A DNA stretch of 34,811 nucleotides from contig JNDT01001726.1 of assembly GCA_000697055.1 (NCBI GenBank), positions 1 to 34,811 of the forward strand, in the 5' to 3' direction. The number at the start of each line of letters is the position of its first letter. Position 1 is the first letter of the stretch. This stretch comes from Saksenaea vasiformis B4078. Taxonomy: Eukaryota > Mucoromycota > Mucoromycetes > Mucorales > Saksenaeaceae. Shown one piece after another: positions 496 through 34,811 of the stretch. The translations under genes and the position numbers were made by a program. Below the pieces are notes generated by a model. It did no database searches and was not told the DNA's origin. It saw only the letters and a program-made list of their open reading frames with translations.

Positions 496-610
496 AATAC
501 ACAAGTTTATGAATACAACAACCTTTGGAAGCTCCTAAAAATTTTTGCCAATTTTTTTTGTCATGAGGAGCTACTTTTGAATACTGTTTATTGGATCACT
601 TTTTACACTA
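496..610 (-). mobile_element. 5' terminal region of the Tc1-like element
   Basis: Upstream of the transposase ATG lies a 7-bp inverted pair, AGCTCCT (530-536) and AGGAGCT (566-572). It is followed by sequence ending ...ACTTTTTACACTA near a TA dinucleotide at 609-610, a plausible element end. The segment from 582 on also resembles the start of the dispersed repeat seen at 16663 and 21475, so the exact boundary is uncertain. Confidence 0.45.
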
Positions 611-6689: not shown

Positions 6690-7082
6690 TGTTAAAAACG
6701 CGTTTTGGTAATGAACATGTGCAATGGAGGAGAAGAAGTGTCCCTGAAAAATAAAAAGGTTAAACATTGATCCAGGGGTTACCATGCTAGTACCTTATTT
6801 TCAAAGAGGAAAAAAAGGAGAGAAAGGGTGAATGAAAGAGAGCGAGAAAAAGGGAACAGTAAATAAGCGGGAAGGATGAGTAATCAGCTGAAAAGTTGTG
6901 CGCGTTCGAATAAAAGAAAAAGCTGGTTAAAATTAGCGCTCTCTCCCCTTTATTCGTCCCACGTGGAGGTAAACCATCGACGATCCGGGCTTTTATTGAT
7001 CCAATTCGGTAAAATAATCCCCGGTGCCTGTATTTGTCATTTCATCTCCAACCCTGTCGATCTTACATATAATGTATTTTAA
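6690..7082 (-). promoter_or_regulatory. Probable flippase promoter with pyrimidine-rich leader
   Basis: Immediately upstream of the flippase start the coding strand is strongly pyrimidine-rich (purine-rich on the plus strand at about 6800-6870). This is a common feature of fungal core promoters and leaders. No clear TATA box was identified. Confidence 0.35.
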
Positions 7083-12255: not shown

Positions 12256-12402
12256 CGCCATACTGAGAGATGATGGTTGAGTGCATCCGAAACGGAGGAG
12301 AGAAAAAAAAATGACCTGGCCATCTGACCACATTACACAAAAGAGCAATTATTTTTGTCCTCTTCTCCTCCTTTCTTGCTTTCTTTTTTGTTTTTCTTTT
12401 AT

Positions 12403-16662: not shown

Positions 16663-17645
16663 TACTGTTTATTGAATGTATCTTTACGCTACTCTATGTA
16701 AATTTTGTGACCATCGAGAGCCAGGTTTGTGCTAAATGAGGGGTGAAATACGCGGTTATCAGTACATAAATTGGCGATAAAATAATACTCTACTTACATC
16801 AACTTGGTCCCCAGATGAAGGCAAAATTTATTCGAGCAGCATAAAAATTTATCCACGGTTAGTAAACGGAAGATACTTGATGTCAATTCACTTACCCCCA
16901 AAGAGCATACCTGCCCGTTGGCAGCAGCCTGCCCCGCACCTGACGCGACGGGGGTGGCAGAGGAGACTATACTGGTGCAAGCACCAGTTTGGGTTTTGAC
17001 GCCGTGCAGAGGACTTGAAGCGATGCAACGTCTGGCGAGGTTATGTCGTGGAAGTTGAGCGAGGCTGCGTGTGACAGCATTTAATTACCTGGTGAACAAT
17101 GGGCTACACTACAGCCGAGATGGTTCGGGACAGAGGTCATGCAGGCTAAAGAATAGACATAAAAACATGAGTAATCCTGCACGTATATAAATTGACATCC
17201 TTACCGGGGATGCCCTTTTGAGAAACAGAGCCAAAGAATTTAAAAATGGTTCATCCATGCCTTTAAATGCGGATCATTTTTGGATGAAACCTTTCCTTAG
17301 CTTGAGCACATTTTTATTGCTTTCCGACGGAATATTGGGAAATCGATCGCTGAAGTACCTCAATGCAAAGATAATGTTCTTGCTTCAACGGAACGTTTGC
17401 CTTACCTTGAGACATTTTTACTGCTTCCGGGAAGAATACAGAAGAACCATCGCTGAAGCACTTTAATGTAAAACTGAGGTTACCCAGGCGCGAATTGTTC
17501 CTTGGATTAATACAAGTGAACCACTTCTTCACGCCAAGACGCATCACTCTCCAGTGCTAAAATTATTTGGCTTGAACGTCTCATAACATTTATTTGCTGC
17601 AAACGCTCACTAAAAATCCAATATTTTCGCTAGCGGCGACCAGAG
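16663..17645 (+). repeat. Dispersed non-coding repeat, copy B (longest)
   Basis: Begins TACTGTTTATTGAATG and aligns with copy A over its full length, with the landmarks GCAGAGGACTTGA, GTGTGACAGCATTTA, CTTACCGGGGATG and GGTTACCCAGGC in the same order. It contains an internal imperfect tandem duplication of about 100-115 bp (about 17300-17410 and 17411-17485). Both halves hold ACATTTTTA-TGCTT followed by CATCGCTGAAG-like sequence. It has no coding capacity. Confidence 0.75.
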
Positions 17646-18535: not shown

Positions 18536-18921
18536 AATATTGCAGTTGAACGCTTGAACAACGAATGAGAAACAGTCGAGATAATACACCAGCATGATGC
18601 ATTTTAAGTTTATGCTTCCCACAAATGTTTGGTGTCACAGGGCGCAAAAAGTGGTATTCGAAATATGGCGTTGACACTAGTTTATACAGAAAATTCTGTT
18701 ATTAACTATTGGTTATCGCAAAGCAGATGACAGCAGAGCGGATCCGATTCAGGATCAGATGTGCTACAACTGACAGAGACCCTGTTTTATTGCTCTGAAG
18801 TCCAAGACACTTTATGTAGCTGGATTTCAATCGGAAGTGTTCTGGACAGCCTAGTCTAAACAAATGTGGTAGTTCTCGACGATGGCGTAACGTTGCGAGA
18901 TTGAAATTTTGATGGTGCTAT
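18536..18921. other. 5' flank of GST1
   Basis: No reading frame of note. The right half shows patchy resemblance to the DNA preceding the GST4 relic (28100-28280), including a GCGTAAC-TTGCGA block at about 18888 versus 28230-28240. This marks duplicated promoter-proximal sequence. Confidence 0.4.
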
Positions 18922-18956
18922 TTGTCATCATCGCTGAGGCGCAGCCACTATTACAA
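18922..18956 (+). promoter_or_regulatory. Conserved upstream box of GST1
   Basis: Starts TTGTCATCATCG, has the core GGCGCAGC and ends TTACAA. The same box stands before GST3 (23408-23443) and GST4 (28280-28313), each time ending 76-80 bp before the ATG. It is absent before GST2. Conservation above the surrounding sequence suggests a binding site, though shared descent alone could explain it. Confidence 0.5.
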
Positions 18957-19036: not shown

Positions 19037-19925
19037 ATGAGCACAGCAAACTTTCCAAAGGTTACACTTCACTACTTCCTTCTTGGTGGAGATCGTAAGT
19101 AAAACAGTTACGTTGATTCACCGTAACTTAATGCATATTTTACCAGCCAAGCGAGGTCTTGGTGAAAATGTAAAATTGTTGTTGGAGGATGCTGGCATCG
19201 AGAACGAGTATGTGCAAGGAGCATATGAAGATTGGCCTGAGAGGAAAGCAAAGCTGGTCGAAGAAGGTTACGACATGGAAACCCTTCCCATGCTTGAGAT
19301 CGAAGGCAGAAGACTCGGAAAGACTGTACCAATCATGCGATACGTTTCTAAAAGGCTGGGTGAGTTCAGTATTAACGCTTATAACAGCTGCTGACCCTAT
19401 ACCTAGGCAAATATCTCGGATCTAATGATGAAGAGGATCAATACTTGGATGCCTTGTCCGATATCCTTCTGGATTGGGGAAAGTATTACTCCTATGCAAC
19501 TTATCGCGGTACAGAGGTAATTGTAACTAGGCCAGTTGGATTATTTCGAATTAAAGCATTCTGCATTAATAGGAGCAAAAGAAAGAGTACAGCACAGTTA
19601 CCGTTCCAAAGTATCTAAGCTTATTTGAAAAGTACTATTCTCGACATAATGGTCCATATGTTTTGGGTGATAAGGTCAGCTTATTTCATTAAGGATTCGG
19701 CGTGCTCACGTTGAAGTGCATTAGATTACCTATGTGGATTTCCTAGTATACCACAGGATTGATAGCGACTGTGCAGACTACAAGGTAATGTGATGATCAA
19801 ATGCTATGAGACCAAGACCCGCTCACAACATCCCATAATAGAACTCTCCAAATTTGGCGAAGTTCGTTGAAGCGTTTGTCGAAAGACCTAACCTTAAGGC
19901 TCATCTTGCTCGTGTCAATGCTTAA
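19037..19925 (+). CDS. Glutathione S-transferase, sigma-like (GST1), six exons
   Basis: Exons are 19037-19094, 19147-19359, 19407-19516, 19573-19674, 19725-19784 and 19842-19925. All introns are GT-AG and about 47-57 bp, and the join gives 208 residues, normal for the cytosolic GST fold. The thioredoxin-like half has HYF at 12-14 (candidate catalytic Tyr13), LGENVKLLLEDAG, cis-proline in TLPMLE (Pro67) and KTVPIMRY (78-85), where Thr79 replaces the Ser of the usual Gln-Ser glutathione-binding pair. The helical half ends in NSPNLAKFVEAFVERP. The family conjugates glutathione to electrophiles or isomerises lipid-like substrates in the cytosol. Exon lengths match GST2 exactly up to exon 6, and a promoter box and TATA precede it. 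It appears intact. The neighbouring terpene synthases suggest a role in terpenoid handling, but general detoxification is equally possible. Confidence 0.9.
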
Positions 19926-20457
19926 TTTCGTCAAAATAAAAATAAACAGATCATGTCAGTTCATCTTATACCAGCACAGGTTAACTGCACCTGGCATACA
20001 TCTGCAGAGTTACCATCTCATGTACAATTGGTTGACTAGCAAATTTTTCGACGCTTATTTTCAACTACGCGCATGCTAAAGCCATGTACACTGGACGAGT
20101 TTGCACTTCTGTTGTAGCAACCTATTCATCTATCCTATGACACCCTGAAGAAAGTCAACACGTTTACTTTGACAATTACAGATGCTACCATATGGACAAA
20201 ATGGGTTTCACTTACGAAAAAAAATTATTATTGCATTATACCAAGTAGTTAGCATAGGACAAAGTTTAGTCAGAGTGTAAATATTGTTTTCCATGAACAA
20301 TATGCAATTTCAAACATGAACAGAGTGATTAACACTTTGTGTGAAAAACGTGACAAAATGTCACTAGAAGCTGGTCCTTCGGTAATGCATCGGAATGGAG
20401 CTGAAAAGATGCATCTGATATATTGAAATGCAGCAATAACCAACTAAATTTTCAAGG
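19926..20457. other. Spacer between GST1 and GST2
   Basis: Contains the GST1 3' flank and the GST2 promoter region. The 70-codon frame at 19867-20079 overlaps the last GST1 exon out of frame and is a shadow. The GST upstream box is not found here. Confidence 0.4.
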
Positions 20458-20465
20458 ATATAAAG
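20458..20465 (+). promoter_or_regulatory. TATA-like element of GST2
   Basis: ATATAAAG lies about 40 bp upstream of the GST2 ATG. Unlike the other GST copies, no GGCG-AGC/TTACAA box precedes it, so GST2 may be regulated differently. Confidence 0.45.
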
Positions 20466-20503
20466 AACAAAGACTTCCATCGCAACAAAATAACGAACCT
20501 AAC

Positions 20504-21397
20504 ATGACTACAGTTGCCTTTCCAAAAACTACCCTTTACTATCTTCTTCCTCCGATAAGTTGTAAGTCAGTTAGACCGTTAAAATACCATTCTCTGACAA
20601 CCCTTTTATTAGACAAGTTTGGCCTTGGCGAAAACGTAAAGTTGCTATTGGAGGATGCTGGCATCGAGAATGATTATGTACGAGTGTCATATGAAGATTG
20701 GCCCGAGAAGAAGACAAAGCTGTTCGAGGAAGGATACTACCTGCAAACTCTTCCCATGATCGAGTTTGAAGGCAAACGAATCGGAAAGACCGTGCCCATC
20801 ATGCGATACATTTCTAAAAGTTTAGGTTAGTCTTTCATTGATCCTAACAACGTTCCCTGATCATATTTAGGCAAATATCTTGGATCGAACGACGATGAGA
20901 ATCAATACTTAGATTCTTTGTCCGATGCCGTTATGGACTGGGCCCAAGACTTCTTTTCCACATTCAGACAAGCTACGGAGGTACAACTATCTTTCTCAAT
21001 TTCGTGACATTTTATAAACGTGCTGCATCCATAGGATACAAAGGAAAACTATAAGGAAAAACTCTTACCAAAACACGTCGGTATCTTTGAAAAAGTCTAC
21101 GCCCAACATATTGGTCCTTACATTCTGGGTGAACAGGTCGGCTTAGTTGTTTAGCAAGTTGATAAACTCACAATAAACCCGATAGATTTCGTATGTGGAT
21201 TTCCTAGTATTCCACGAGTTGGATCAGGAAGAGGTGGACCTGAAGGTGAGATCATTCGCAGTTGCAAACCGAGAAAGAAGCTGACGGAAATGGTATAACA
21301 GGACTATCCGCATCTCGCTGAGTTTGTTAGTACTTTCATTGAACGTCCTAATATAAAAGCCCATTTCTCTCATACTAGCGCCTCGTTTTATCAGTAA
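20504..21397 (+). CDS. Glutathione S-transferase, sigma-like (GST2), six exons
   Basis: Exons are 20504-20561, 20613-20825, 20871-20980, 21035-21136, 21186-21245 and 21302-21397, all GT-AG, giving 212 residues. Intron positions and phases are identical to GST1. Features are TLYYLL near the N-terminus (candidate catalytic Tyr), FGLGENVKLLLEDAGIENDY, cis-proline in TLPMIEFEG, KTVPIMRYISK and a helical half ending HLAEFVSTFIERPNIKAHF. Exon 2 is closer to the GST3 relic than to GST1, so GST2 and GST3 share a more recent ancestor. The C-terminus is four residues longer than GST1. It appears intact. Substrate is unknown; likely a cytosolic glutathione-dependent enzyme acting beside the terpene synthases. 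Confidence 0.9.
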
Positions 21398-21474
21398 TAA
21401 ATGTCACACACCAGAGTAGCGTTCTTACTCGTGATAGTCTCTTTGGCTAAGGTAATAGGAAAACAATCATAGTA

Positions 21475-21680
21475 TACTGTTCATTGAATGCTTCTTTACG
21501 CTACTCTATGTAAATTTCGCGTCCATCAAGAGCCAGGTTTGCGCTAGGGAAGGTATGAAATATGCGGTTATCAGTATATAAAATTGGCGATAAAATAATA
21601 CTCTACTTACATCACTGTAGTCCCCAGATGGATGCAAAACTTATTCGAGCAGCATAAAAATTCATCCATGGTTAGTAAAT
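21475..21680 (+). repeat. Dispersed non-coding repeat, copy E (5' end only)
   Basis: TACTGTTCATTGAATGCTTC through ATGGTTAGTAAATG is nearly the same as the first 200 bp of copy B, then similarity stops abruptly. It begins about 80 bp after the GST2 stop. The high similarity to copy B suggests a younger copy or a shared duplication. Confidence 0.7.
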
Positions 21681-23407
21681 GCCATTATAACCAAATCTTT
21701 CAACATTATTTTCCTTTAATGTCTCGATTCCTGCTTGAGGCTGTCTCCTGTTCCTGGCTTGCGGCAATTGCTAGTTCCAGTTAGTTCTGTCACGGCCCAA
21801 CACGCACCATTGCTACAGACGTGTGTCATTGCGGCGACATATTTTTTCTTCGGGAATATACAAGTGGCGTTGCCTTTCTTCCTTAGCATCTCTTCAGAAT
21901 TTTTCTAGCAGCTTGCTAATTTTTGGGAATTCTTATTTGGCTACAGCATTTCCTGGCACTGTTGATTAATGCTTAGCACGGTCACGGAATATATAATTTT
22001 CCGACGTATCGTGCCGCGTGTAAACTCAGCAATCTTGCTTGCGAGACATCCATGCTGATCTGATGAAACAACGATCAGTTCTCTTAAACTTCCTTTTTTT
22101 TTACGGAAGCGTTACAAGGGGTTTCGATAAACATGCATCTTAAAGCTTGGAGAACGGCGTAATATTATATGCAACTTCTGTACGTGGCTAATTCATCAAG
22201 TGACTAAGGAATCGAGGTCTTCGAACCAGCCACTAGTGCTCCTCGGGAGTAACTTACCGGATTAAAAAGTACCACTTTTTCCGTGTGCTTCTATTGGTAA
22301 ACTTTCTGACCATGACTTCACTGGCTCGTGAAACGCAGAACCAGTTCCAAAGGATATATCCGACTATAGAAGGCTGCGTGATAACGTCTTATTGCGTATC
22401 TACAAGAAGTTATCTAATATAAAATTGGTATGCGACTTGAATTAGGTCTCATAAGGAAAATACCAGTAATAATCTCGGTAGAAAGAGGATGAACCTGAGT
22501 AAATGTATTGTAAGCACTATTTGAACTCAAGATACCAAACTAAGCACAGATTCCGCGGCACCTTTCGATGCATGTACGGAGAGTGCTTGTCAATCCATAC
22601 TGTGCCGAAATGACGATTATGTGCTTTCGTTTGATTTCTCTAGGTATCAATTCTGTTAGGTTGACGGTCATTGGGACACTGGGAGGAAGATAGCCAAATT
22701 TGGAAGTAGGTGAACGGCCTTAGCGCAATGATCGATCCGGCCTTGGTTACACAGAGAAACGTGTTACCTTCGTCTCACATCCCTTCCTTTTCTCTCTGCC
22801 TATTGAATGAGGCATACATGGTAAAATCTTTCATCCTAAATGATGGAAAGCAAATGTCTACTGTTATGAAGCAGTTAATTAACCCCTTCGCCGTTTTCAA
22901 GGTTTGAACGCGTATGGCATCTGACGGCACAAGATTTTTATAGATTTGATCGACTGGTTCTCCAGTTCATCTTGGTAGTCAGTTCAAAGTAACACGCTTT
23001 TAACTAACAATTATATGTACAGACACAATTTCATTTAGTAGAACCCATGCAAATATTATGTCATTTTTTGCAGGAACGGCCCGCCTATTTTTCCTTTTAT
23101 TTTAATGTAAATGATTCGCTAATAAAGGTATGAATTTTCCGCTACACCGTTATCATTAGCAAACAATATAGATATACTTGTATACATCCCAACATGGCGT
23201 TATCATTGGCTCAATGTTCTGTATGAGTTCCGAAGTCGGGACCTCACCACTTTGTGTGGCATGCGTTCTCCCTACTGAGAATGGCGAAGCCAAGAACCTT
23301 TATTGGGTAGACAACGTTCGCCTAGCGGTACGGTGTCGAACACTCCTAAGCAGTACACAGCTGGTAAAGTTTAGATTCGTCAAATTGATCTGCCGAAAAC
23401 TGCGTAT
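21681..23407. other. Long spacer with no recognised gene
   Basis: About 1.7 kb with only small frames (22710-22907 and 23178-23423, plus), neither with a motif. No RNA gene or transposase fragment was recognised. The last part is the 5' flank of the GST3 relic. Confidence 0.4.
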
Positions 23408-23443
23408 TTGTCATCATCATTGAGGGCGGAGCCGGTGTTACAA
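23408..23443 (+). promoter_or_regulatory. Conserved upstream box of the GST3 relic
   Basis: TTGTCATCATCATTGAGG, then GGCGGAGCC and TTACAA, ending 80 bp before the ATG. It is nearly identical to the GST1 box. A TATA-like TATAAAA follows at 23463-23469. Confidence 0.5.
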
Positions 23444-23522
23444 TAATTTAGATCTTCATGCATATAAAATGCGTACAGGTTGTTTTTCATCGAACAAAAA
23501 AAATAGCTTCGATAACGACGAT

Positions 23523-24152
23523 ATGAGCACGACTGCCTTCTCAAAAGTTGCTCTTTATTATTTCATGCCCTTTGGAAACTGTAAGTAAGCCGGGCTCCTT
23601 GATGTACCATTCCTGATATAGTTTGTTACCAGACAAGTTTGGCCTTGGCGAAAACGTGAAGTTGTTATTGGAGGATGCTGGCATTTAGAACGAGTATGTA
23701 CGAGTGTCATTTGAAGAATGGCCCGAGAAGAAGGCAAAGCTGCTTGAAGAAGGCTACTACCTGCAGACTCTTCCCATGATCGAGTTTGAAGGCAAACGAA
23801 TTGGAAAGACCGCACCGATCATGCGATACATTTCTAAAAGTCTAAGTTAGTCTTTTAAAGGTCCTAATGACAATTACTGATCAACCTTAGGCAAATATCT
23901 TGGATCGAACGACGATGAGAATCAATACTTGGACGCTACAACCGATATCGTCTTGGACTGGGTCAAAGCCTTTTTTCCACATTCAGTCAAACAGAGGTAC
24001 GAGCATCCATCTCAATTGCGTTGTCGTTTATTAATTTACTGCATCCATAGGACCAAAAGAAAGACTACAAAGAAAATACCGTACCAAAGTACCTTAATAT
24101 CTTTGAAAAGATCTACGCCCAACATAATGGACCGTACATTTTGGGTGAAGAG
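23523..24152 (+). pseudogene. GST3, broken glutathione S-transferase copy
   Basis: Exon equivalents are 23523-23580, 23633-23845, 23887 to about 23998, and about 24051-24152. Splice sites are largely kept and exon 2 is nearly the same as in GST2. It is dead for several reasons. A TAG stands at 23686-23688, where GST2 has a Glu codon. Exon 3 is about 4 nt shorter near its end, shifting the frame. Exons 5 and 6 are absent: after GAAGAG|GT the sequence departs from GST2 and never returns. The promoter box and TATA survive, so it may still be transcribed. Confidence 0.85.
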
Positions 24153-25546
24153 GTCGGCTGACTTGCTTAACAGTTGATACGAGCATTTTCGGTTTATCAA
24201 AACTCACGGATTTATATAGTCCGCCAGCTGCCCACGTGACCCGTGATTTTGAGTTTGGGCTCACGGACGGTATCTGAAATCCCAGGGATAAATGTATAAC
24301 CGTCTTCATATAGCTGATTTCAATGGCTTCACGTCTTACTGCTGATTATTAGGGTTGCAAGCAATATTTATTTACGTTGCCTTCATCATGTCTTTACTAT
24401 AATGTAGATATATCATCTAGCACTTGTATCTCGCTCATTGACGCCGGCTTTAATATTAGGCGAAGTGGAACACCTTTGTTCATGGATAGTGGTTTCGGAT
24501 TACGTGTGATGATTTATGCATCTCCACTCTTTCTCTACCCAGAATGATATAATGAAATTCGCTATCATATATCATGGATGTTCCAGATATGCTCTAGTTT
24601 GTACCGGGTGTCCTTCATGCCCGAGAAGCTATTGGCCACACAACGTGTTTATCGTAATCTATCTGTGAAGATTTCTTGTTTGAGGCATGACCTGTTCTCG
24701 TTCTCAAACACATATTTAAAAACAAATATTCTATTCGATTGTCACCTATAACAAGCTATTATCCCTTTTACTTCATTCTTTCGAATGTATTCATCTTAAA
24801 GGTATTTTTCTTTATTGGTAATCATGTCATGGACTAACCTGTTCTTCAGGATCCTCTTTCCGCGTGAGCCATATCATCAACCTACGTAGTTGCGGGTACG
24901 GGATGGCTTCCTTGTAATGATATCAGCTCTTTTTTTCCTTTAACCAAACGGTTTGTCATTATTATTCCTTGTATGCCAATACTTACTGTGCAATAGACTT
25001 CTGAACAGTTTATTACCTTCTTTTGTCTTTACCGATAACCAAGGGTAGGTACCTTTACTCCAAAATAAATCAAGCTAATATCCTTCTAACAGTGGGACAT
25101 CTATGGTGATGACTGCTCAAGTCGTATTTGGTATTCGCCATCTCGTTTTCTCGCTGAACGCATTTTCCATTTATTGTAAGTGATTTCGCTGCAGTAACGT
25201 TTTGATACTGAGCTTTTGAATCTACTATTGGTTGACGGTTATGGTACACCCACAACACCATGTTGTGGGTGTTTACAAAAAAAAAAAAAGCGCCGTAGAT
25301 CCTCCGGGAACTGTAAGCGTTATTTGATCAGGGTTCACTTGCATTGTACTAATGTCTTTTCCTAACAGGTGGCTTTGTGTGATGGCATCAGGACTACGTA
25401 GGTAACGCGCTTTCTTGTGTTCACCATCTCATCCAAGCTACTTTCAGGGTCCTGCCAAAACCATCGGGTAAGAAAAAATGTCGGACTTTTGTGTGAGCCG
25501 ACTTTTCCGTGATGTTTCACATCGCTGTGTTTGGCGTTCTTTTCAG
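24153..25546. other. Spacer between GST3 relic and TPS1 flank
   Basis: No supported gene; frames of 60-90 codons on the minus strand lack motifs. It contains the perfect hairpin at 25246-25272 followed by an A-tract, listed separately. Confidence 0.4.
25246..25289 (+). repeat. Perfect 12-bp hairpin followed by an A-tract
   Basis: Left arm ACACCCACAACA (25246-25257), 3-nt loop CCA, right arm TGTTGTGGGTGT (25261-25272), then TTAC and 13 A residues. The arms are perfectly complementary. It is not associated with a recognised gene end. Confidence 0.7.
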
Positions 25547-26072
25547 CCCAGGGCGGAGGTTTGGCAGATTTTGTGCGACAGCCAAGTAAATTTCGGCATT
25601 CGAAAGAAAACATCCTTGGCTGAAACGCTTGCTAATCTCTGATGGCGCAAGTATTTCTAAAAATGTACTGTTGTTCCTTTTTAAAGAGAAGAAAGAAATT
25701 TCTGAAAGATTGATTCTTCTAAAGCCTGCAATTATTGGGTTAGAACCTATCTGAAGCTTGCAAAAAGAAGCAAACTTCTCAAAACGGAAGATCAAAGATC
25801 TCGAGAGTGCTTGGAACTTGAGTGAATGTTATGCACGCCATGCATTGACACGTCAAAATATGTTTTCTTTCCTTTACTTATAGTATCTTGGTATGAGGAG
25901 TGGGCATGTTAGACATAATAAACTAATACCCACTGGGAATCTAGATCGAACTTGATGAAGTGCACTACGGGAAGCCGGTTCCTGATTGAATACTTTTGCC
26001 TAAGTAAAAAATAGTCCACACGGGAACCGGCTTCCCGTAATGGTGCTAGCAACGTACCGATGAAAACAGGAC
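25547..26072 (+). repeat. Duplicated 5' flank of TPS1 (pair with 29297-29754)
   Basis: Aligns by eye with 29297-29754 upstream of TPS2. Shared blocks include AAGTAAAT, CTCTGATGGC, TAGAACCTAT, GGCATGTTAGAC versus GGACATGTTAGAC, AAACT and ACTTGATGAAG. The TPS1 side carries an extra 70-bp hairpin insertion (25966-26039). The match shows that TPS1 and TPS2 arose by segmental duplication including the promoter region. Confidence 0.7.
25966..26039. mobile_element. Tiny MITE-like hairpin element with TA duplication
   Basis: A perfect 17-bp inverted pair (TACGGGAAGCCGGTTCC at 25966-25982 and its complement at 26023-26039) encloses a 40-nt loop. The outermost TA on each side fits a TA target duplication, as made by Tc1/mariner-type transposases. 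The element is absent from the corresponding place upstream of TPS2 (about 29729), so it is an insertion polymorphism between duplicates. It lies about 175 bp upstream of the TPS1 start. Confidence 0.7.
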
Positions 26073-26152
26073 CTCAGACGCACGCGGGAGGCGTTTTTTG
26101 CGGCATAACGTATTTGCTCTTATTCGTGTGCGGATGATAGATCCCAAACTTC

Positions 26153-26160
26153 TATATAAA
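26153..26160 (+). promoter_or_regulatory. TATA box of TPS1
   Basis: TATATAAA lies 55-62 bp before the TPS1 ATG at 26215, the same placement as in TPS2 and TPS3. It argues for the ATG at 26215, because a start at 26098 would lie upstream of the TATA box. Confidence 0.6.
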
Positions 26161-26214
26161 CACGGATTCATTCACGGCTCAACCGACAGCATGCTGTTTG
26201 CTCACGAATCAACC

Positions 26215-27108
26215 ATGGAACAAGCTTTTGTCGTGCGTCGAACTTATCAATTTGACGACAAGCAACCACAAAGCAATGTTATTGCCCAAATTTTGGATTA
26301 CTTCCAAATACCACGCACACAAGAAGTCTGCATCTATCGTTTCAAGGAAATTGACGACCTAGCTCAACAAGTGGTTGACGAGTACAAGCTCAATATTAAC
26401 CTTGACGATATACGGTTGAACGGATCGTTGATGCCAGATAACCACAAGTCATCTGGCATTCAAGCGTTCTATTACTTTGCAACTGTCATTGATGATTTGA
26501 TCGTATTCCGTGGGATCGACTATGTCGATGTTATTAATGCACTTGAATACCGTGTTAACAACATGCCGCCCCTGGTACAAAAATTACTCTCTACCATGAT
26601 GAAACACATGGAAAAAGATTTCGGCGACAAATTCACTACTCTGCGTACAGAGATGATTAGCGCGGCCACTTTCGTGAATCAGCAGCTCCAAGCAAAGTTT
26701 AGCAGGAACGAGTACTTTATATTCAAGCTTCGATGCCATGGCTCTTACTTTGTTCTCTTTTTCATGTTCATGCTACGCGATATCCAGTGTACATATATCG
26801 AGTATCATGAGATGCAACATACGTATGAAATGCTCATGTTCTATATAAACGAGCTGGCGTCATGCATCCGGGAAAAGAACGAAGGTGAACTATCGTCAGT
26901 CGACAAGCTCTTCTGCACAAACGACTTCTCCAGGATTGCGGAATATTGCAGCAAGCAAATTTACAAGACGATGGATGGGCTTGAAGAGAGGTGCAACTTA
27001 ATGGCATCCTTGGAATTGTTTCGGCTATGCAAGAACACAGTCTTTGTTCACCTTGCTTCAGAGCGACACGAGAAGTTCTTCATTCATACTGAAGAGCACA
27101 AACAATAA
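26215..27108 (+). CDS. TPS1: trichodiene-synthase-like class I terpene synthase (intronless)
   Basis: 297 residues in one exon. The frame is open further upstream to 26098, but the paralogue TPS2 starts at MEQ and a TATA box sits at 26153, so ATG 26215 is the start. Class I terpene synthases ionise a prenyl diphosphate with three Mg2+ ions. Matching features: helix motif YYFATVIDDLIVF (Asp93-Asp94), NSE triad NELASCIRE (Asn212, Ser216, Glu220) fitting N(D/E)xxSxxxE, basic sensor position Arg173 in KLRCHGSY about 40 residues before the triad, and SERHEKF at the end where the family usually has Arg-Tyr. Total length and motif spacing (119 between DD and N, 64 from Glu220 to Arg284) resemble Tri5-type sesquiterpene synthases. 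The aspartate motif lacks the distal acidic residue, and position 285 is His instead of Tyr. No overall sequence match could be tested; catalytic activity is inferred. Confidence 0.72.
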   Translation: MEQAFVVRRTYQFDDKQPQSNVIAQILDYFQIPRTQEVCIYRFKEIDDLAQQVVDEYKLNINLDDIRLNGSLMPDNHKSSGIQAFYYFATVIDDLIVFRGIDYVDVINALEYRVNNMPPLVQKLLSTMMKHMEKDFGDKFTTLRTEMISAATFVNQQLQAKFSRNEYFIFKLRCHGSYFVLFFMFMLRDIQCTYIEYHEMQHTYEMLMFYINELASCIREKNEGELSSVDKLFCTNDFSRIAEYCSKQIYKTMDGLEERCNLMASLELFRLCKNTVFVHLASERHEKFFIHTEEHKQ

Positions 27109-28279
27109 AAGTAGTTGATGCTAAGAGCTATTATTTCTCTCGTCTCTGTTTGTTTTTCAATGTTATCAGAACAATAAGGGAGGACCATTCCAGTTTACAG
27201 GGTGCATACGTAACCTTCTTTTTCTCTACTGCGTCTCATTTGTAATGCCAGCCAATGGCATTACGTATAGAGTAAGGACTTAAATGTAGTACTAATGGAT
27301 GGACGGACTAAAAACCGGACGGAGGAAGTAGAAGTCTCCTTGGCCATTTTGCATCGAAGCTGAAGGAGCAGACGCACGCAGTGATTGCTTTTCTCTCTAC
27401 CACCATGTCCATTTTTAACCAGAAATCGTTCATATCAGGGATTGAAACAAAGATGGGCCATAGCATCTGTTATAAACTTGGTTTTTAAAGGTTCAATAAT
27501 GTAGACAATCGAGAAGTATCGTGAGAGTCGTGTTTATTTAGAAATTGTGATGGGTCAGTATTTATAACCTCGGATAAATGTCTTCCCTTTCTGACTATAT
27601 TATGGACTCCGATTGATAGTTGTAATTCATTGACCCTGCTCTTATAGCATGTAATTGAGAAAGTATAAGTAGAGAGTTGTCTCTCATAACCGTTGTTGAT
27701 TTACCACAGCATCTGCTTGGTACTCCAACAAGGACAATCTTGTGGTGAGGTTTCCGCGGGAATTTACCTTGGAAGCCCAAATCATGTTTTATTGTCTGTC
27801 CTATTCCTGAATCTTTATTTCTGTCTCTATCTAAGGAATTTCGGCAATTACGGTGAGGTAATGCACTTCATCTTCCAGTTGACGAGCATGTATTGTATCT
27901 TTACTCAAAGTTCCCACCAGTAATATTCTATGACTTTGTTTGCAGGAATTTTGAAGGGTAGCTGAAACTCCAGTGAGATGAACATGAAAAAATGCAACAA
28001 TAATAACAAAATTTACAACGATGCTATCTACAGTTACGGAAATCTTATTCTCCGGCAAATCACACAAATAGATTGACCTATTTACGCGGTGATAGGACTT
28101 CGTCTGTAGCCGCAGCAAATTTGTATCACAAGATGCTGGTCTAGTTGGACGAGGATGAACTTGTTTTATATAAGAGCAGTGATAAAGTGCCCTTCAAAGA
28201 CGCTGAAATACGGAATAATGGGCTATCTCGAGAAAATGACGTAACTTTGCGAAATCTGAACCTTCTGATGGTGTTATAT
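27109..28279 (+). repeat. Duplicated 3' flank of TPS1 (pair with 33447-34811)
   Basis: Non-coding DNA that aligns in order with the DNA downstream of TPS3. Shared blocks include CAATGT-ATTAGAA, GCCAGCCAA-GG, ACCA-GTCCATTTTTAACC, GTACTC-AACAAGG-CAATCTT, GTCTGTCCTATT, AAGGAATTTC, ATGAACATG, ACGGAAAT-TTATTCTCCGGC and GATGAACTTGTTTT. The pair differs by about 530 bp present only on the TPS3 side. Frames here (27693-27923, 28145-28378) are broken or overlap the GST4 promoter. Confidence 0.7.
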
Positions 28280-28313
28280 TTGTCTTCCATGGTGGGGCGC
28301 AGCGGGGTTACAA
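28280..28313 (+). promoter_or_regulatory. Conserved upstream box of the GST4 relic
   Basis: TTGTC, then GGGGCGCAGCG and TTACAA, ending 76 bp before the ATG. It is the third occurrence of the GST box and is more diverged than those of GST1 and GST3. Confidence 0.45.
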
Positions 28314-28388
28314 ATGCTCTCGAATTTTATGCGTACCTTAGAACAGTTGTTTCACTCAACAAAGCACAAAATCGATGATCGTAACAAC

Positions 28389-29020
28389 ATGGCTGCAACT
28401 ACCTTTCCTAAATTACCCTTCACTATTTCCTCGTCCAGAATGATCGTAGGCTTGACTGATTTGTCATGCTATTGGATCTGATCCATCTCTTCTTAGACAA
28501 GCGTGGTCTTGGTGAAAATGTGAAACTGTTGCTGGAGTATGCTGGCATCGAGCACGATTATGAACGAATAATTATCGAAACGGCCCTGAGAAGAAGGAAG
28601 AGTTAGCTGCGCGAGGCGACATGCTGCAAACTCTTACTATGCTTGAGTTTGATGGAAACGATTTAGGGAAGGTTAGACCCGTATGCGCTGCAGTTAGAAG
28701 AAACCAAGTAAGTTCATTTTTCTTTGATAAAACTAGTCGAGATTACACAGGAAAATACCTCCTGTCAAAATGACGAGGAAGAACCACTCTTGGATGGTTT
28801 GTCTGACACTACGTATCATACGACTGGATCGCAGGTTACTCGAGAACTTTCTACCATAGCACAGATGGACGGATGATGATACACGTTTGCCGAATTTGGG
28901 TCATTTTTCCATATCGACAGGACGAAAAGGATTTTGTATAAATCACCCAGCCCAAATATTTGAACGACTTTGAAGCGCTCTTTGCTGAACACATCGGACC
29001 ATATCTCCTGGGGAAAGGAT
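28389..29020 (+). pseudogene. GST4, heavily decayed glutathione S-transferase copy
   Basis: Starts ATGGCTGCAACTACC like the other copies, but exon 1 (28389-28445) is one base short, shifting the frame. Exon 2 begins at 28497 with KRGLGENVKLLLEYAGIE, then has indels and a stop near 28606. Exon 3 and exon 4 relics are traceable at about 28747-28860 and 28920-29018. The last keeps the NDFEALFAEHIGPYLLG pattern after a frame change. Exons 5-6 are not found. It is the oldest-looking GST copy, lying between TPS1 and TPS2. Confidence 0.8.
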
Positions 29021-29296
29021 CGATCGAAATGTGTGATAATTTGACAAACTGGGGAACAATTGAAGGAGATCTATTGCCCTTGGAAGGCAGCTAAGCTGGG
29101 AACCAGTTGGGGAAATTTGAGATGAAATGGCAGCAAGGGAGCTGTTACATTAATTATAAGATACCTACACATTTATGGCTACGGCTAGTGCGTCTCCAGT
29201 AAACCGGTAGAGAATAACTTTGCCAGTGACAGTCAACGTTTGCATAGCCATGTTTCGGGGACTATATCCTCAAAGATGAGGACATTGTTGTTCCAA
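29021..29296. other. Spacer between GST4 relic and TPS2 flank
   Basis: No reading frame with a motif. Nothing else was recognised in it. Confidence 0.4.
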
Positions 29297-29754
29297 CCCG
29301 GCGCGGATATTTGCAAGCTTTTCTGCAAGATACAAGTAAATACCGGCGTTGTAAAGAAGACGCACTTGGTGCAAATGTAAGCTAACCTCTGATGGCAGAA
29401 ATATCTCCAAAAAGATACTCTTGCTCTATTTGTAAACAAAAGAAACGAAGTCCTTCGATAGTGATGCCGCAGTAGCCTGCTGCTTTCGGGATAGAACCTA
29501 TTGAAGTTTGCAGAATGGAATAAGCTTCTCTGCAGGATGGTTGAGGTCGCTAGGATGTCGGAAAGTTGAGAGAATATTATGCATTTGCGCGTCATGCATC
29601 AGCTCTGTCAAAATATTTTTTTCTTGTCTTTAAGGATAAGTTTCTCTCGCAGTACTTCTGTGTGAAGAGTGGACATGTTAGACCTGATAAACTGACACTC
29701 GCTGGGAATGCCGGTTGATCTTGATGAAGAGTAAACAACGTAGCGATAAAAACA
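29297..29754 (+). repeat. Duplicated 5' flank of TPS2 (pair with 25547-26072)
   Basis: The counterpart of the TPS1 upstream flank without the hairpin element. Minus-strand frames across it (29595-29233, 29883-29608) have no recognised domain and are not conserved in the paralogous flank. Confidence 0.65.
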
Positions 29755-30310
29755 GAGTTCGAACACAAGTCGAGTACAAAGGCGTGGGAGCTGAGATATA
29801 TGTGTGTGAAAGTGTGAGTATATAAGTGAAAAGACCAGACAGGAAAAATCCTTTGAGGCTGAGTTATCCTTTATCGTCCTCATAGTTAAGCTGTTTATAT
29901 GATGTCTCTGTGTACACGGTGTTGTCTATGTGTTGTCTCCCAATAAGTACAGAATATAGATTAAGCAAGAGAGAATCGGCTGCATGGACAGAATTACAAT
30001 CTGTTGTTGCATTGTGCATGTAGTAGGATGGTCTTATCGTCTTAACACTGCTACGTGAAGAGATATACATTGTACAGGAAATACGATGATCTATGAACCT
30101 TTATTTAGATAGTACATTGAAGACTCGCTTCTCAAGGTGCATTACACATATCAGCTGTACGAACCAGTTTAGAAAATTCAGTCAATACCTAGTTAGTTCA
30201 TCTTCAACATGGGACCGCAAATCACGGCACTAAATAAATCATTCTACACACAAAAAAAAAAAAATCAGCTGTACGACAGAAGTCACTTTTGCCGCAAGAA
30301 CTCAAATATT
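29755..30310. other. TPS2-specific upstream stretch
   Basis: About 550 bp that separates the duplicated flank from the TPS2 core promoter and has no counterpart before TPS1, so it was inserted here or lost there. It has a 13-A run near 30250-30264 and no recognised gene. Confidence 0.4.
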
Positions 30311-30320
30311 TATATAAATA
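30311..30320 (+). promoter_or_regulatory. TATA box of TPS2
   Basis: TATATAAATA lies 52-61 bp before the TPS2 ATG, the same placement as in TPS1. Confidence 0.6.
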
Positions 30321-30371
30321 CTGTCTTATTAGACATTCAGCAGATAGAGCACTGATTCCCGAAAACTGAAC

Positions 30372-31265
30372 ATGGAACAAGATTTTGTCGTGCGCCGAAC
30401 TTACCAATTCAACGACCAACTTCCGCACAGCGACATTATTGCTGGACTTTTGGAGTACTTCCAGATCCCTCATACATATGAAGTCTCTGTTAACTATTGT
30501 CAGGAACTTGATAACATTGCCCAGCGGGTGATCGATGAGCATAAGCTCGTCATCAACCTTGACGACTTGCGCTTGAGCGCATCGTTGATGCCAGAAAACC
30601 GCATGTCACGTGGCGTCATATCATTCTATTACTTTACGTTTATTATCGATGATTTGATGGTATTCCATGGATTCGATTACGTCGATGTGATTAATGCTCT
30701 TGAATGCCGGCCTAATAACCTGCCCTCAGCGGTGCAAGAGCTGGTTGCTACTTCCGTAAAGCATTGGGAGAAGGATTTCGGCGACAAATTCGCTCTACTG
30801 CGGACAGAAACGATTATCTGGGTCGCTTCCGTGAACCAACAGCTCAAAGCAAAGTTTAACAAGAACGAATACTTCATGTTCAAGCTTAAATGCCATGGGT
30901 CCTACTTGGTTCTCATTTTGATGTTTGCACTGCGCGATGTTCAATGCACGTACCTTGAATACCGTAACCTGCAGCTGACGTACGAAATGCTTGGGTTTTA
31001 CATAAATGAGCTAGCATCGAGTATCCGGGAAAAGGACGCAGGCGAACTAAACTCTGTCGATAAGCTCTTTTGCACAAATGACTTCTCCAGAATTGCGGAG
31101 TATTGTAGCAAACAAATTTACAAGACGATGAATGGACTCGAAGAAAAGTGCAATTTGATGGCGTCTTTGGAATTGGCTCGACTATGCAAGGATACAATCT
31201 TCGTCCATTTTGCCGTGGACAGATATCAGAAGCTTTTCGTTCAAATCGCACAACGTAAACAGTAA
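30372..31265 (+). CDS. TPS2: trichodiene-synthase-like class I terpene synthase (intronless)
   Basis: 297 residues, exactly the length of TPS1, in one exon starting MEQDFVVRRTYQF. The metal-binding motifs are kept: YYFTFIIDDLMVF (Asp93-Asp94) and NELASSIRE (Asn212, Ser216, Glu220) followed by KDAGE. The C-terminal Arg-Tyr pair typical of the family is present (VDRYQKL), unlike in TPS1. The upstream basic position is Lys173 (KLKCHGSY) where TPS1 has Arg. These swaps could alter product or activity. TPS2 is the most diverged of the three, and its 3' flank is not shared with the others. It appears intact. Assignment rests on motif order and spacing rather than a search, and a non-catalytic paralogue cannot be excluded. 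Confidence 0.72.
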   Translation: MEQDFVVRRTYQFNDQLPHSDIIAGLLEYFQIPHTYEVSVNYCQELDNIAQRVIDEHKLVINLDDLRLSASLMPENRMSRGVISFYYFTFIIDDLMVFHGFDYVDVINALECRPNNLPSAVQELVATSVKHWEKDFGDKFALLRTETIIWVASVNQQLKAKFNKNEYFMFKLKCHGSYLVLILMFALRDVQCTYLEYRNLQLTYEMLGFYINELASSIREKDAGELNSVDKLFCTNDFSRIAEYCSKQIYKTMNGLEEKCNLMASLELARLCKDTIFVHFAVDRYQKLFVQIAQRKQ

Positions 31266-32089
31266 AAATCAGTTCGCTACCTCGTCAAAATCTTGGTAGC
31301 TCTGTGCATCTTTGCGTTAATTTTAAAATATTTTGTATCAGCTCCAAATAGGAAGTATTTTATTATATGTTGATGCAATGTTAAATATGATAAGGTGTAC
31401 AAATTGCATGTGCAGCGATGGTGGGTACAAACAATTTTGTCGCGCCATTGACAGAAGGTCTGTACGGTGACCTTCCCTTTTATGCACATGTTCAGTGCTT
31501 GCGAGAGGGTTTAGATTTTTGGATTATGCTGAGTATGAGCACGATGTGGCGACCGATAATGCCTTCCGTAGTCTGACAGGTTTACTCTCTATTGCCAGAT
31601 CATTGAGTTGGTGATCGAGCGAAGGTATCGTCTACGGTAGCAATCCCCATTGCCCCCGTTTAACCAGAGACCACATCACTATTGGTCGCGCTATGAATGC
31701 AGCAAGGGATATCGAGCTGAAGGTCGTTTTCACAACGGTCTATTCAGGTGGAAGTCCATTTATGTCATGTAACTCCCAGTACAAGCACTTTCAAATGATG
31801 TCTAAGCATTTATTATCATATTTTAATACATACTCTGACAGGCAAGCAGCGATTGATATTACCAAGGGCAGCACCAATATTTGCATAATCATGCATCATG
31901 AGCTATACTCTTTGGGGGGAATATTCCGCATTTTCGTATCAGGTCAGAGGCCAGTCTAATGCGTCTTTTGTATCTGCGGCTAGATCAATTGATTCCTACG
32001 CCCCCAGAAGGGCGCGTACACTCGGTTATGTTTGCTGCAAAGTGCTAAATACATCTTATAAACACGCAGGCGATCACGTAAATTTTGCA
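31266..32089. other. Spacer downstream of TPS2 with no recognised gene
   Basis: Contains small frames (31693-31959, 31898-32113 plus) without motifs. It does not match the flanks downstream of TPS1 and TPS3, so a breakpoint lies close after the TPS2 stop. Confidence 0.4.
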
Positions 32090-32182
32090 ACACCAGCAGC
32101 CAAGCAGAAATAATCGTTTGACTTGAACGTACAATGACATTTATTTGATGCAGATTCTCAATCAAACTCCAGGATTTTCAGT
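32090..32182 (+). repeat. Dispersed non-coding repeat, copy D (3' end fragment)
   Basis: TTGAACGTACAATGACATTTATTTG, split here as TTGAACGT, GACATTTATTTG and CAGATTCTCA, matches the 3' end of copy B near 17568-17630 (TTGAACGTCTCATAACATTT). Only the last 90 bp of the family are present. Confidence 0.5.
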
Positions 32183-32477
32183 GAGACCTAGTCGTCCTTG
32201 AGCGACACTTCGTGCTGTACATGGGAATAGACATGCACTTCGCAAATTGGTAACTAGGAATTAAATGGGATGATTTGCTTATTGAAGAAATATTCATACA
32301 TCGGATGCTATCCATGACCTAGTTTGTGCAGAAATAAGACAGTGGCTTTAATGAGAAAGCATGGTGAAGTCGCACAAGTATACAGAAATATGTGAATCCT
32401 AATTAAGTATAAAGTCCTAGGATGCAGCTTGTTAGTTTCCTTGCTTGAATGCTGCACGGGTAGGTCTCAGAAACCAG
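32183..32477. other. TPS3 upstream region
   Basis: No gene. Apart from the TATA box at its end, it shows no clear match to the TPS1/TPS2 upstream flanks, so TPS3 may have a different promoter. Confidence 0.4.
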
Positions 32478-32485
32478 TATAAATA
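32478..32485 (+). promoter_or_regulatory. TATA box of TPS3
   Basis: TATAAATA lies 65-72 bp before the TPS3 ATG. Confidence 0.5.
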
Positions 32486-32549
32486 CAGGCTCGTCTAACA
32501 AGTGCATCGGTAACAGCTGTAAGGCGATTATAGCGCCAAAAGCAAAAGT

Positions 32550-33446
32550 ATGACCATCGAGTCAGACTATGTAGTCCGTCAAAGGTACGAATTTGATGGC
32601 AGGCACCCACAAAGCAACGTTATTTCCGAACTTTTGGATTACTTCCAAATACCTCGCACACGCAAAGTCTACATCAACCGCTTCAACGAAATCGACGAAA
32701 TATCTCAACAAGTGGTTGACGAGTACAAGCTCAATGTTAACCTTGACGATATACGGTTGAACGGATCGTTGATGCCAGATCACCACAAGTCATCCGGCGT
32801 TCAAGCATTCTATTACTTTGTATTTATCTTTGATGATTTGATGGTGTTCCGTGGGTTGGACTATATCGATGTTATTAATGCACTTGAATACCGTGTTAAT
32901 AGCATGCCATCTCTGGTACAAAAGCTGCTTTCTACCATCCTAAAACACTGGGAAAAAGATTTCGGCGCCAAATTTACTCTGTTGCGTACAGAAATGATCA
33001 CATGGGTCACTTCCATGAACCAACAGTTAAAGGCAACGTTTACCAAGAACGAATACTTTATGTTCAGGCTCAAATGCCATGGCTCTTACCCCCTTCTTCT
33101 TTTGATGTTCATACTACGCGATGTCCAATGCACATATATCGAGTATCGTAATTTGCAGCACACGTTTGAACTGTTCATGTTTTATATAAATGAACTGGCG
33201 TCATGTATCCGGGAAAAGAACGAAGGTGAATTATCGTCAGTTGACAAGCTCTTCTGCACAAACGACTTCTCCAGATTGCGGAATATTGCAGCAAGCAAAT
33301 TTACAAGACGATGGATGGGCTTGAAGAGAGATGTAACTTGATGGCATCTTTGGAATTGATTCGGCTATGTAAGAATACGGTCTTTGTTCATCTCGCCTCG
33401 GAAAGATATAAGAAATTTTTTTATTAAAACCGCAGAGTATCAATAG
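32550..33446 (+). pseudogene. TPS3: frameshifted terpene synthase copy
   Basis: Starts MTIESDYVVRQRYEF and follows TPS1 closely. It keeps YYFVFIFDDLMVF, RLKCHGSY and NELASCIRE. At about 33274 one base is missing compared with TPS1 and TPS2, so the frame leaves the family sequence and stops at 33341 (263 codons). In the original register the rest is still recognisable to a terminal SERYKKF, and a run of seven T at 33416-33422 carries one extra base. The two indels are of opposite sign, but the out-of-frame stop lies between them, so the product loses the last helices including the Arg-Tyr pair. All metal-binding motifs precede the break. It is probably non-functional unless the indels are sequencing errors. 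Confidence 0.8.
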
Positions 33447-34811
33447 TAGAGGTAGCTTGTGCTTACACCTATTGTTTCTCTTGTTTCCGTTTGCTATTCA
33501 ATGTCATTAGAATAATAAGGAATGACCGCTGAGTTTCTAAGGTGCGTATGTAGCCTCCTTTTTCTCTGTAGTGTGTCATGCGTAGTGCCAGCCAACGGTA
33601 TCAAATGTAGAGTAAAGACAGTTAAATGGATGGATGAGCTAAAAGTTGGACGGAAGAATTAGAAGTTTCCATGGCCGATTTGCATCGAAGCTGAAGAACG
33701 AGGCGTAGCCTGATGGTAGTATTACTTTTTTCTCTACCTCTATGTCCGTTCTTTAACCGGAATCGTTCATAGGAGCGATAGAAATAAAGACGGGTTATGG
33801 TGCTTGATCGGTACTCTAACAAGGTCAATCTTGCGGTAAGTTTTCCACGGGGTTTTTAGTTTGGAAGACCAAGCCATACCTTTGTCCGTGTTTTAGTGTC
33901 TGTCCTATTTCTGCATCTTTATTGCTATTTCTGTCCAAGGAATTTCTGCGTTTGCGGAGATGTAATGCAGCTGATCTTCCTATTGATGAAGATATATTGG
34001 TGTCTTCACTTGAAGACTCCACCAGTGAGATTTAGGACTGTGACTACAGGAAATTTAAAGGATAGCTGGACCTCCAACGAGATGAACATGGACAAATACG
34101 GTAGTAGTAACGAAATCTACAATGATGAAGAGCAGCGTGACAAAATGGAAGTGCAATATGATGACTATACTATTTCTGTTTGTGAAGTGAACATTTGCGG
34201 CAGAGCAGAGCTGCTGTTCGGTATCTACAACCTTAACAAAAGATGACTTCCGCTTGGAAAAACCAGTGTTTGCATCCAGCCTGGCTTACTCGTACCGAGT
34301 CTGTCCTCATATTCTCAATTACTTTCACCATGAGAAAAATGTTGCTGACTATCGACAGTCTCTTGTCATTTTCAGGCAAATATCTCTAATTTGTGTCACT
34401 TTCGCTAAGGATTTGGTGGCGTGTATCGGTATTTCCGAGTACTTATCAGAAAATGACAAGGCGCTCTTAAATTTTCTACAACCTTTCTCGATCTGTTGTG
34501 GCTGTTTTCCAAATTCTGACGGTGAAAACTGTGTTACATCGTTCAGGCCCCATAAAACCTTACGATCGGAGATGAACGTGGCTTGGAAAGCCAAATGCTT
34601 CTTCTCGTACTACTTTCCAAAGCTTTCGAATGTCATTGATTTGTCATGCTACCTACGGTTACGGAAATTTTATTCTCCGGCGAATCACACAAGGAAATTG
34701 GCTTATTTACGTGTTGCTAGAACTTTGTCTGTAGCCGCAGCAAATTTGTGTCACAGGGTGCTGATCTAGCTGGACGATGATGAACTTGTTTTTATAAGAG
34801 TAGTGATAAAG
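33447..34811 (+). repeat. Duplicated 3' flank of TPS3 (pair with 27109-28200)
   Basis: Matches the TPS1 downstream flank in order and ends at the window edge within GATGATGAACTTG-TTTTATAAGAG-AGTGATAAAG. That equals about 28151-28187, roughly 200 bp before the GST4 relic start. Between about 34126 and 34650 it contains sequence missing from the TPS1 side. The frame 33896-34246 is open here but broken in the paralogue. Confidence 0.7.
34126..34650 (+). other. Copy-specific 525-bp segment with open frames, possible gene fragment
   Basis: Present only in the TPS3-side duplicate. The frame covering 34040-34246 gives a charged, stop-free stretch (for example RDKMEVQYDDYTISVCEVNI). A second frame at 34254-34769 is stop-free for 171 codons, with NDKALLNFLQPFSICCGCFP in its middle. 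TTTTCAG followed by GCAAATATCTC at about 34372-34386 resembles a splice acceptor plus the first bases of a GST exon 3, then diverges. No family is recognised. Confidence 0.25.

What the first reader, a model, noticed from the sequence alone, without database searches (positions are those of the whole stretch)
19037..34811. Tandem array alternating GSTs and Tri5-like terpene synthases
Seen: four sigma-like GST copies and three intronless 297-codon genes with class I terpene synthase motifs, all on the plus strand within 16 kb, in the order GST, GST, GST, TPS, GST, TPS, TPS. Known: class I terpene synthases make volatile or precursor hydrocarbons, and GSTs often accompany fungal secondary-metabolite genes as protective or tailoring enzymes. 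Inference: this is a minimal terpenoid locus in an early-diverging fungus, a lineage not known for rich terpene clusters. It evolves by birth and death of gene copies.
Basis: partly seen in the sequence, partly recalled or inferred. Interest (0 to 1): 0.85.

Follow-up and report, generated by a model that had tools for sequence, protein, structure and literature searches.

The report
Unnamed terpene synthase family, duplicated array
A mould related to Mucor carries a short array of duplicated genes for a so far unnamed kind of terpene-making enzyme, interleaved with detoxifying-enzyme genes that were probably copied along with it by accident rather than forming a pathway.

Summary
The array is real, but less tidy than described. 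GST1 and GST2 are intact six-exon genes; GST3 and GST4 are pseudogenes. TPS1 and TPS2 are intact 297-codon intronless genes; TPS3's frame is broken. A 324-bp identical contig-end overlap shows that the array continues into an intact GST5 on contig C203.

Alternation follows from segmental duplication: TPS1-spacer-GST4 is colinear with TPS3-spacer-GST5. A fourth, strongly conserved TPS copy (C460) has no GST found within about 28 kb, and Apophysomyces has the GST clade but gave no TPS hit. A pathway is unproven; birth and death is supported.

The parts
19037..19925 (+). GST1, intact, 6 exons, 208 aa (GST_C_3)
   Evidence: splice model with five GT-AG introns; Pfam PF14497 1.1e-20; nearest named relatives Apophysomyces 61%
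20504..21397 (+). GST2, intact, 6 exons, 212 aa
   Evidence: splice model; PF14497 2.3e-19
23523..24170 (+). GST3 pseudogene: in-frame stop in exon 2, no match to the last two exons; 82% DNA identity to GST2
25541..25960 (.). block upstream of TPS1, 67% identical to 29291-29729 upstream of TPS2
26215..27108 (+). TPS1, intact intronless 297-codon class I terpene synthase-fold gene; RY pair reads RH
27111..28187 (.). TPS1-to-GST4 spacer, colinear (with gaps) with 33452-34811
28390..29110 (+). GST4 pseudogene (many frame breaks); lies in a block 77% identical to the spacer end and intact GST5 of contig C203
29291..29729 (.). block upstream of TPS2, partner of 25541-25960
30372..31265 (+). TPS2, intact intronless 297-codon gene; modelled here (pLDDT 88.4, pTM 0.87)
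32550..33424 (+). TPS3, frame broken near codon 240; C-terminal homology continues in another frame
33452..34811 (.). TPS3-to-GST5 spacer; the last 324 bp (34488-34811) are identical to the end of contig C203, on which GST5 lies

Best explanation
The TPS genes encode a so far unnamed family with the fold and most signatures of class I terpene synthases. Shown: the class I alpha fold (predicted model), an invariant DD at the end of the helix that carries it, an NSE-type triad N-E-L-A-S-x-x-R-E, a helix break where the helix G break is expected, and a C-terminal RY pair. Inferred: Mg2+ ions held by D93 and by N212/S216/E220 grip the diphosphate of a prenyl diphosphate (perhaps FPP; no call predicts the substrate), the chain is ionised and cyclised in the cavity, and K171-C174-H175 do the job of the canonical sensor-linker-effector triad Arg-Asp-Gly. 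One copy of the genome (contig C460) is kept nearly unchanged and probably makes the ancestral product. A copy that lay beside a GST was tandemly duplicated as a TPS-spacer-GST segment. After duplication different partners decayed: TPS1 is intact and GST4 is dead; TPS3 is broken and GST5 is intact. The intact array copies keep the metal ligands and look constrained, but changed positions that are invariant in the rest of the family, so they probably make other products or are losing specificity.
Against: The third acid of DDXX(X)D is missing, the sensor is Lys instead of Arg and lies 41 instead of about 46 residues before the triad, the Trp six before RY is Val in nearly all rows, and the Asn 8-9 after the triad is not Asn. 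No sequence-level link to a known terpene synthase: Pfam, NCBIfam and PDB gave only chance-like hits, and the profile search reached only the family itself. TPS1 has lost the Tyr of the RY pair, TPS3 has Arg at 171. YN00 dN/dS is higher, 0.29-0.58. No activity, expression or product data.
Confidence: 0.7

Rival explanations
1. A minimal terpenoid pathway locus: GSTs conjugate or isomerise, or protect against, the product of the TPS, and selection keeps them together.
For: They are interleaved in 16 kb and one duplicated segment carries both; three GSTs and two TPS remain intact, with NG86 dN/dS of 0.17-0.27 among the GSTs.
Against: No GST found within about 28 kb of the conserved TPS copy on C460 (tblastn with GST1/GST2; no C460 place, whose lists are lower bounds). 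The GST clade exists in Apophysomyces, from which no TPS hit came. No Mortierellaceae or Gigasporaceae among the 24 named of 29 GST hits. No P450 among 79 matches lies on C334, C203 or C460; transporters could not be judged (9 of 259 MFS candidates scored), and three other open frames of the array region had no Pfam match. Partners decay independently.
Confidence: 0.15
2. The family keeps the class I fold but no longer makes terpenes by ionisation, for instance as a prenyl-diphosphate-binding regulator or an enzyme with another chemistry.
For: Missing third acid, Arg to Lys in the sensor, Cys-His instead of Asp-Gly, no Trp before RY; strong conservation (TPS2 is 49-62% identical to the relatives, which lie in other subphyla).
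Against: Metal ligands, the NSE triad incl. its K/R position, and the Arg of RY are invariant in 39 of 39 rows. A natural enzyme with altered Asp motif, triad Asp and even Gly in place of the sensor is active (SmTS1, PMC8450962 passages).
Confidence: 0.17
3. The array copies are dying relics; only the C460 copy matters.
For: GST3, GST4 and TPS3 are broken; long branches; RH instead of RY in TPS1.
Against: TPS1 and TPS2 are full-length, and NG86 dN/dS is 0.115-0.142 against each other and against C460, bootstrap upper limit 0.20; YN00 gives 0.29-0.32 for the same pairs.
Confidence: 0.15

Closest known systems
Microbial class I terpene synthases (LrdC 6oh6, Cop4 8gr7, aristolochene synthase 5in8, selinadiene synthase 4okm, Orpheovirus synthase 8jw3)
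   Different: 6-16% identity in the 50 rows shown; no sequence-profile link; trigger positions K-C-H, no third acid, shorter sensor-to-triad distance; predicted beta strands at both ends (5-13, 35-42, 289-296)
Trichodiene synthase family (TRI5, PF06330)
   Same: General fold only (recalled)
   Different: No PF06330 match in 39 of 39 members at E<=1
SmTS1 sestermobaraene synthase (PMC8450962, passages seen)
   Same: A class I enzyme with natural departures at the Asp motif, the triad Asp and the sensor that is nevertheless active
   Different: Different replacements (Gly at the sensor there, Lys here); bacterial
Terpene synthases counted in Mucoromycota genomes (PMC8070225, passages and section 3.8; PMC7466969, passages)
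   Same: Same phylum
   Different: Those censuses describe ERG7-like, squalene/phytoene-type and four TS2 genes; whether the four TS2 genes include this family could not be checked

Membership tests
Class I terpene synthase superfamily | all-alpha class I fold | tested here: met
   on a predicted model:
Class I terpene synthase superfamily | strict Asp-rich motif DDXX(X)D (usual, not obligatory: SmTS1 has NDLTV, CotB2 DDxD) | tested here: not met
   DD invariant in 39 of 39 rows, third acid absent (DDL[LMI][VI]F). The fold places it in the superfamily; the unmet strict motif is why it is called a new variant
Class I terpene synthase superfamily | NSE triad ND(L,I,V)XSXX(K,R)E | tested here: met
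   N212/S216/R219/E220 invariant in 39 of 39 rows; second position E instead of D
Class I terpene synthase superfamily | Arg pyrophosphate sensor about 46 residues before the triad, with helix G break | tested here: inconclusive
   invariant Lys 41 residues before; model helix breaks at 175-176
Class I terpene synthase superfamily | C-terminal RY pair | tested here: met
   R284 invariant in 39 of 39 rows, Y285 in at least 90%; His in TPS1
Class I terpene synthase superfamily | Trp six residues before RY; Asn 8-9 after the triad | tested here: not met
   Val 278 in at least 90% of rows; Ser 228 invariant. SmTS1 also lacks both
Class I terpene synthase superfamily | turnover of a prenyl diphosphate | not testable with these tools
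   needs an assay
Trichodiene synthase (Tri5) | match to PF06330 | tested here: not met
   0 of 39 members at E<=1
Trichodiene synthase (Tri5) | closest structure is trichodiene synthase | tested here: inconclusive
   not among the 50 rows shown; not listed does not exclude
Terpene_syn_C_2 (PF19086) | score above the gathering cut-off | tested here: not met
   the TPS3 open frame reaches 17.1 bits, cut-off 23.7; 0 of 39 members at E<=1
Cytosolic GST, sigma/mu-like | GST_C_3 and thioredoxin-like N domain | tested here: met
   PF14497 above cut-off for GST1 and GST2, PF02798 just below (18.3 and 18.2 bits, cut-off 20.9); PDB sequence hits of GST1 to GSTs named sigma, mu, alpha and pi; class not resolved
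Fungal secondary-metabolite gene cluster | conserved co-localisation of core and tailoring genes in relatives | tested here: inconclusive
   C460 copy without a GST found, no P450 on C334, C203 or C460; other fungal genomes not available

The most novel reading that the evidence does not exclude
An ancient terpenoid synthase family specific to Mucoromycota, conserved like a core gene in Mortierellaceae, Gigasporaceae and one Mucorales lineage, which triggers substrate ionisation with an invariant Lys-Cys-His instead of Arg-Asp-Gly and makes a shared, still unknown terpenoid (signal or membrane compound); duplicates in Gigaspora and here independently remodel the same cavity positions to make new products.
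Probability: 0.3. Interest if true: 0.8.

Novelty: new variant of a known kind. Interest (0 to 1): 0.55.

Why it matters
Terpene genes are common in early-diverging fungi, but the published censuses describe mostly squalene, phytoene and carotenoid types; in PMC8070225 (157 genomes) the canonical terpene synthases were 33 ERG7 homologues and four TS2 genes. A family without a Pfam or NCBIfam model is likely to be missed by domain-based cluster finders (inference). If active, it opens terpenoid chemistry of mycorrhizal Gigaspora and soil Mortierella to direct test, and its invariant Lys-Cys-His tests how strictly class I synthases need the Arg-Asp-Gly trigger.

Tried and rejected
Sequence routes to known synthases failed: Pfam on single proteins and on 39 members (six families, best E 0.031, unrelated), NCBIfam (seven families, one member each, best E 0.0046, unrelated), PDB by sequence and by profile (E 0.21 or worse, unrelated), profile search of 5.8 billion proteins (41 hits, all the family). 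No prokaryotic or viral relative was found by pattern scans (14 pattern matches each, none confirmed; limited sensitivity, two peptide patterns each). The viral structure library gave Orpheovirus terpenoid synthase as its only hit at E<=0.001: shared fold, not shown kinship. PF19086 in the own genome gave nothing, but its control rang nowhere, so this says nothing. The MFS search scored 9 of 259 candidates and says nothing about the array.

My first overlap count of changed sites (21 shared vs 11.0 expected, p 3.6e-5) included the C-terminus of P0032, which looks like a mis-annotated end. It was repeated up to position 268 without that end and, separately, without P0032 (the latter is the number used). 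Up to position 238 it is 15 vs 7.7, p 5e-4. For TPS1 alone it is weak (8 vs 3.8, p 0.011), for TPS2 alone strong (12 vs 4.3, p 2e-5). For TPS3 alone (9 sites) it is 4 vs 3.0, p 0.35, computed only with the flawed set.

YN00 gives higher dN/dS (0.29-0.58) than NG86, and dS of the distant pairs is near saturation; three GST pairs with C173 could not be estimated. No paper on TPS/GST fungal arrays or on this family came up in the listings (open-licence papers only, listings of at most 25); supplements of PMC8070225 could not be read.
Full report
WHERE IT LIES. The window is a whole contig (C334, 34811 bases) of a 38.7-Mb assembly of 666 contigs. Of 29 GST1 relatives found, 24 bear names and all 24 are Mucorales (by my knowledge of the genera), the nearest being Apophysomyces (61%). 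A GST on contig C173 of the same genome is 78% identical to an Apophysomyces protein and groups with two of them at 100/99 support (tree of 27 rows: 23 of the 24 named hits plus four of this genome; P0054 and five unnamed hits left out). So the host is probably a Mucorales fungus near Apophysomyces; this is inference.

ANATOMY. GST1 and GST2 are intact six-exon genes; GST3 and GST4 are pseudogenes; TPS1 and TPS2 are intact and intronless; TPS3 is broken in its last fifth. The last 324 bp of the window are identical to the end of contig C203, so the match reaches the ends of both contigs (C203 is 103410 long). On C203, 215 bases past the window end in joined coordinates, lies an intact six-exon GST5 (35026-35922 joined). 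The array is therefore GST1, GST2, (GST3), TPS1, (GST4), TPS2, (TPS3), GST5, brackets marking broken copies. The genome search with TPS2 found, besides the window copies, one more gene on C460 and one weak stretch on C624.

HOW THE ARRAY AROSE. Self-comparison of the joined region shows TPS1-spacer-GST4 (26229-29012) colinear with TPS3-spacer-GST5 (32570-35657 joined) at 81, 74 and 77% identity in three blocks, and a block upstream of TPS1 paired with one upstream of TPS2 at 67%. TPS1/TPS3 is the youngest TPS pair (dS 0.43, NG86). The alternation of the two families thus needs no pathway: one segment holding both was copied. Decay then took opposite partners in the two copies.

MOTIFS. PMC8450962 (passages) gives DDXX(X)D, ND(L,I,V)XSXX(K,R)E, an Arg sensor about 46 residues before the triad, a helix G break with a Gly effector, and a C-terminal RY pair with Trp six before; PMC6808215 (passages) gives sensor R178, its partner D181 and effector G182 of selinadiene synthase, that is positions n, n+3, n+4. 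In this family D93-D94 stands near the end of model helix 80-99; N212-E-L-A-S216-x-x-R219-E220 in helix 194-223; the helix break lies at 175-176; K171, C174 and H175 stand at n, n+3, n+4 and are invariant in 39 of 39 rows; R284-Y285 stands at the C-terminus. In the 34 comparison rows these positions do not vary; of the array copies TPS3 has Arg at 171 and TPS1 has His at 285. Missing are the third acid, the Trp before RY (Val 278) and the Asn after the triad (Ser 228). The assignment of K-C-H to the trigger rests on spacing and model secondary structure, not on coordinates, and the distance of 41 residues is five short of the usual.

ONE KEPT COPY, SEVERAL RESTLESS ONES. The copy on C460 differs from the family at 3 of 135 columns that are at least 97% identical in 34 other rows (the fast rows P0030-P0032 and the partial P0038, P0039, P0069, P0070 left out); TPS1 differs at 17 of 135, TPS2 at 24 of 135, the part of TPS3 before its break at 10 of 105. 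The four genome copies are one clade (100/99) in a tree of 42 rows, C460 having an end branch of 0.04 against 0.21, 0.41 and 0.18. NG86 dN/dS is below 1 for 6 of 6 TPS pairs and for 3 of 3 array GST pairs, with bootstrap; some bootstrap draws failed by saturation (92-100 of 100 used), and the three pairs with the C173 GST could not be estimated. YN00 gives 0.29-0.58 for the TPS pairs. Gigaspora and Dentiscutata show a similar picture: neighbouring gene numbers (F8M41_015271 and 015272; 9738 and 9739) and fast copies in Gigaspora (P0030, P0031, P0032; P0032 has a doubtful end). Up to position 268, with P0030 (labelled partial by its source) and P0031, 15 of the 26 columns changed in the array copies are also changed in the fast Gigaspora rows, 7.0 expected, p 1.5e-4. 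Eight of the 15 are 147, 176, 179, 180, 183 (next to the helix break) and 204, 207, 208 (before the NSE triad). In SmTS1 the residue four before the triad Asn matters for the substrate (A222V, PMC8450962 passages); it corresponds to M208 here, a Gly in TPS2. That the sites line the cavity is inference; tolerance of these sites is the plain alternative.

IS IT A PATHWAY? C460 was fetched from 14.0 to 73.0 kb around the TPS at 43.7 kb; GST1 and GST2 find nothing there beyond one 16-residue stretch at E about 0.5, and the genome-wide GST searches, whose lists are lower bounds, show no place on C460. None of 79 P450 matches lies on C334, C203 or C460. The array GSTs form one clade (100/99) with four Apophysomyces proteins, so that GST group is probably older than the array and occurs in a genus from which no TPS hit came. 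The functional link is therefore neither shown nor excluded.

WHAT IS KNOWN. The census of Mucoromycota clusters (PMC8070225; passages and section 3.8) names as canonical terpene synthases ERG7 homologues (33) and TS2 (4), with a weak bacterial signal for TS2 clusters of Diversisporales; whether those four include this family could not be checked. PMC7466969 (passages) reports terpene cyclases as the commonest predicted core genes of zygomycetes, mostly annotated as squalene or phytoene synthases. The listings brought no paper on this family.

VERDICT. A real, partly decayed tandem array of a family with the class I terpene synthase fold that has no name in the libraries searched; a new variant of a known kind. 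The Tri5 label is not supported and the GST partnership is best read as co-duplication.

Noticed in passing
window 581-1449, 16662-17626, 21474-21689: Dispersed repeat (69-87% identical copies in the window); a 596-base piece has 39 further scored copies at 84-88% in the genome (1144 candidates, 40 scored with itself). One copy lies just after GST2.
   Followed up: partly
window 25963-26042: Imperfect palindrome of about 80 bases (77%) upstream of TPS1, without another copy in the self-comparison; may be a small fold-back element.
   Followed up: no
window 18882-18945: Block before GST1 that is 78% identical to the block before GST5 (34860-34927 in joined coordinates): possibly a shared promoter element.
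   Followed up: no
window 2380-6785 (-): Gene for a phospholipid-translocating P-type ATPase (flippase) in several open frames, probably split by introns (PF16209, PF16212).
   Followed up: partly
window 10494-10784 (-) and neighbourhood: Ribosomal protein eL24 gene (PF01246).
   Followed up: partly
window 12355-14160 (+): 601-codon open frame without a Pfam family above cut-off (best CENPH 13.9 bits, cut-off 27).
   Followed up: no
G000:C624:296875-297174 (-): Weak TPS-like stretch (33% over residues 134-235, E 2.9e-4, three stops): an old relic or chance.
   Followed up: no
TPS2 model residues 5-13, 35-42, 289-296: Predicted beta strands near both ends of an otherwise all-alpha synthase; the structural matches span residues 16-290.
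   Followed up: no
P0033-P0037 (unnamed sources): A distinct clade of the family from unnamed short contigs, rich in Lys and Ile by eye, on a long branch (0.86): perhaps an unsampled lineage.
   Followed up: no
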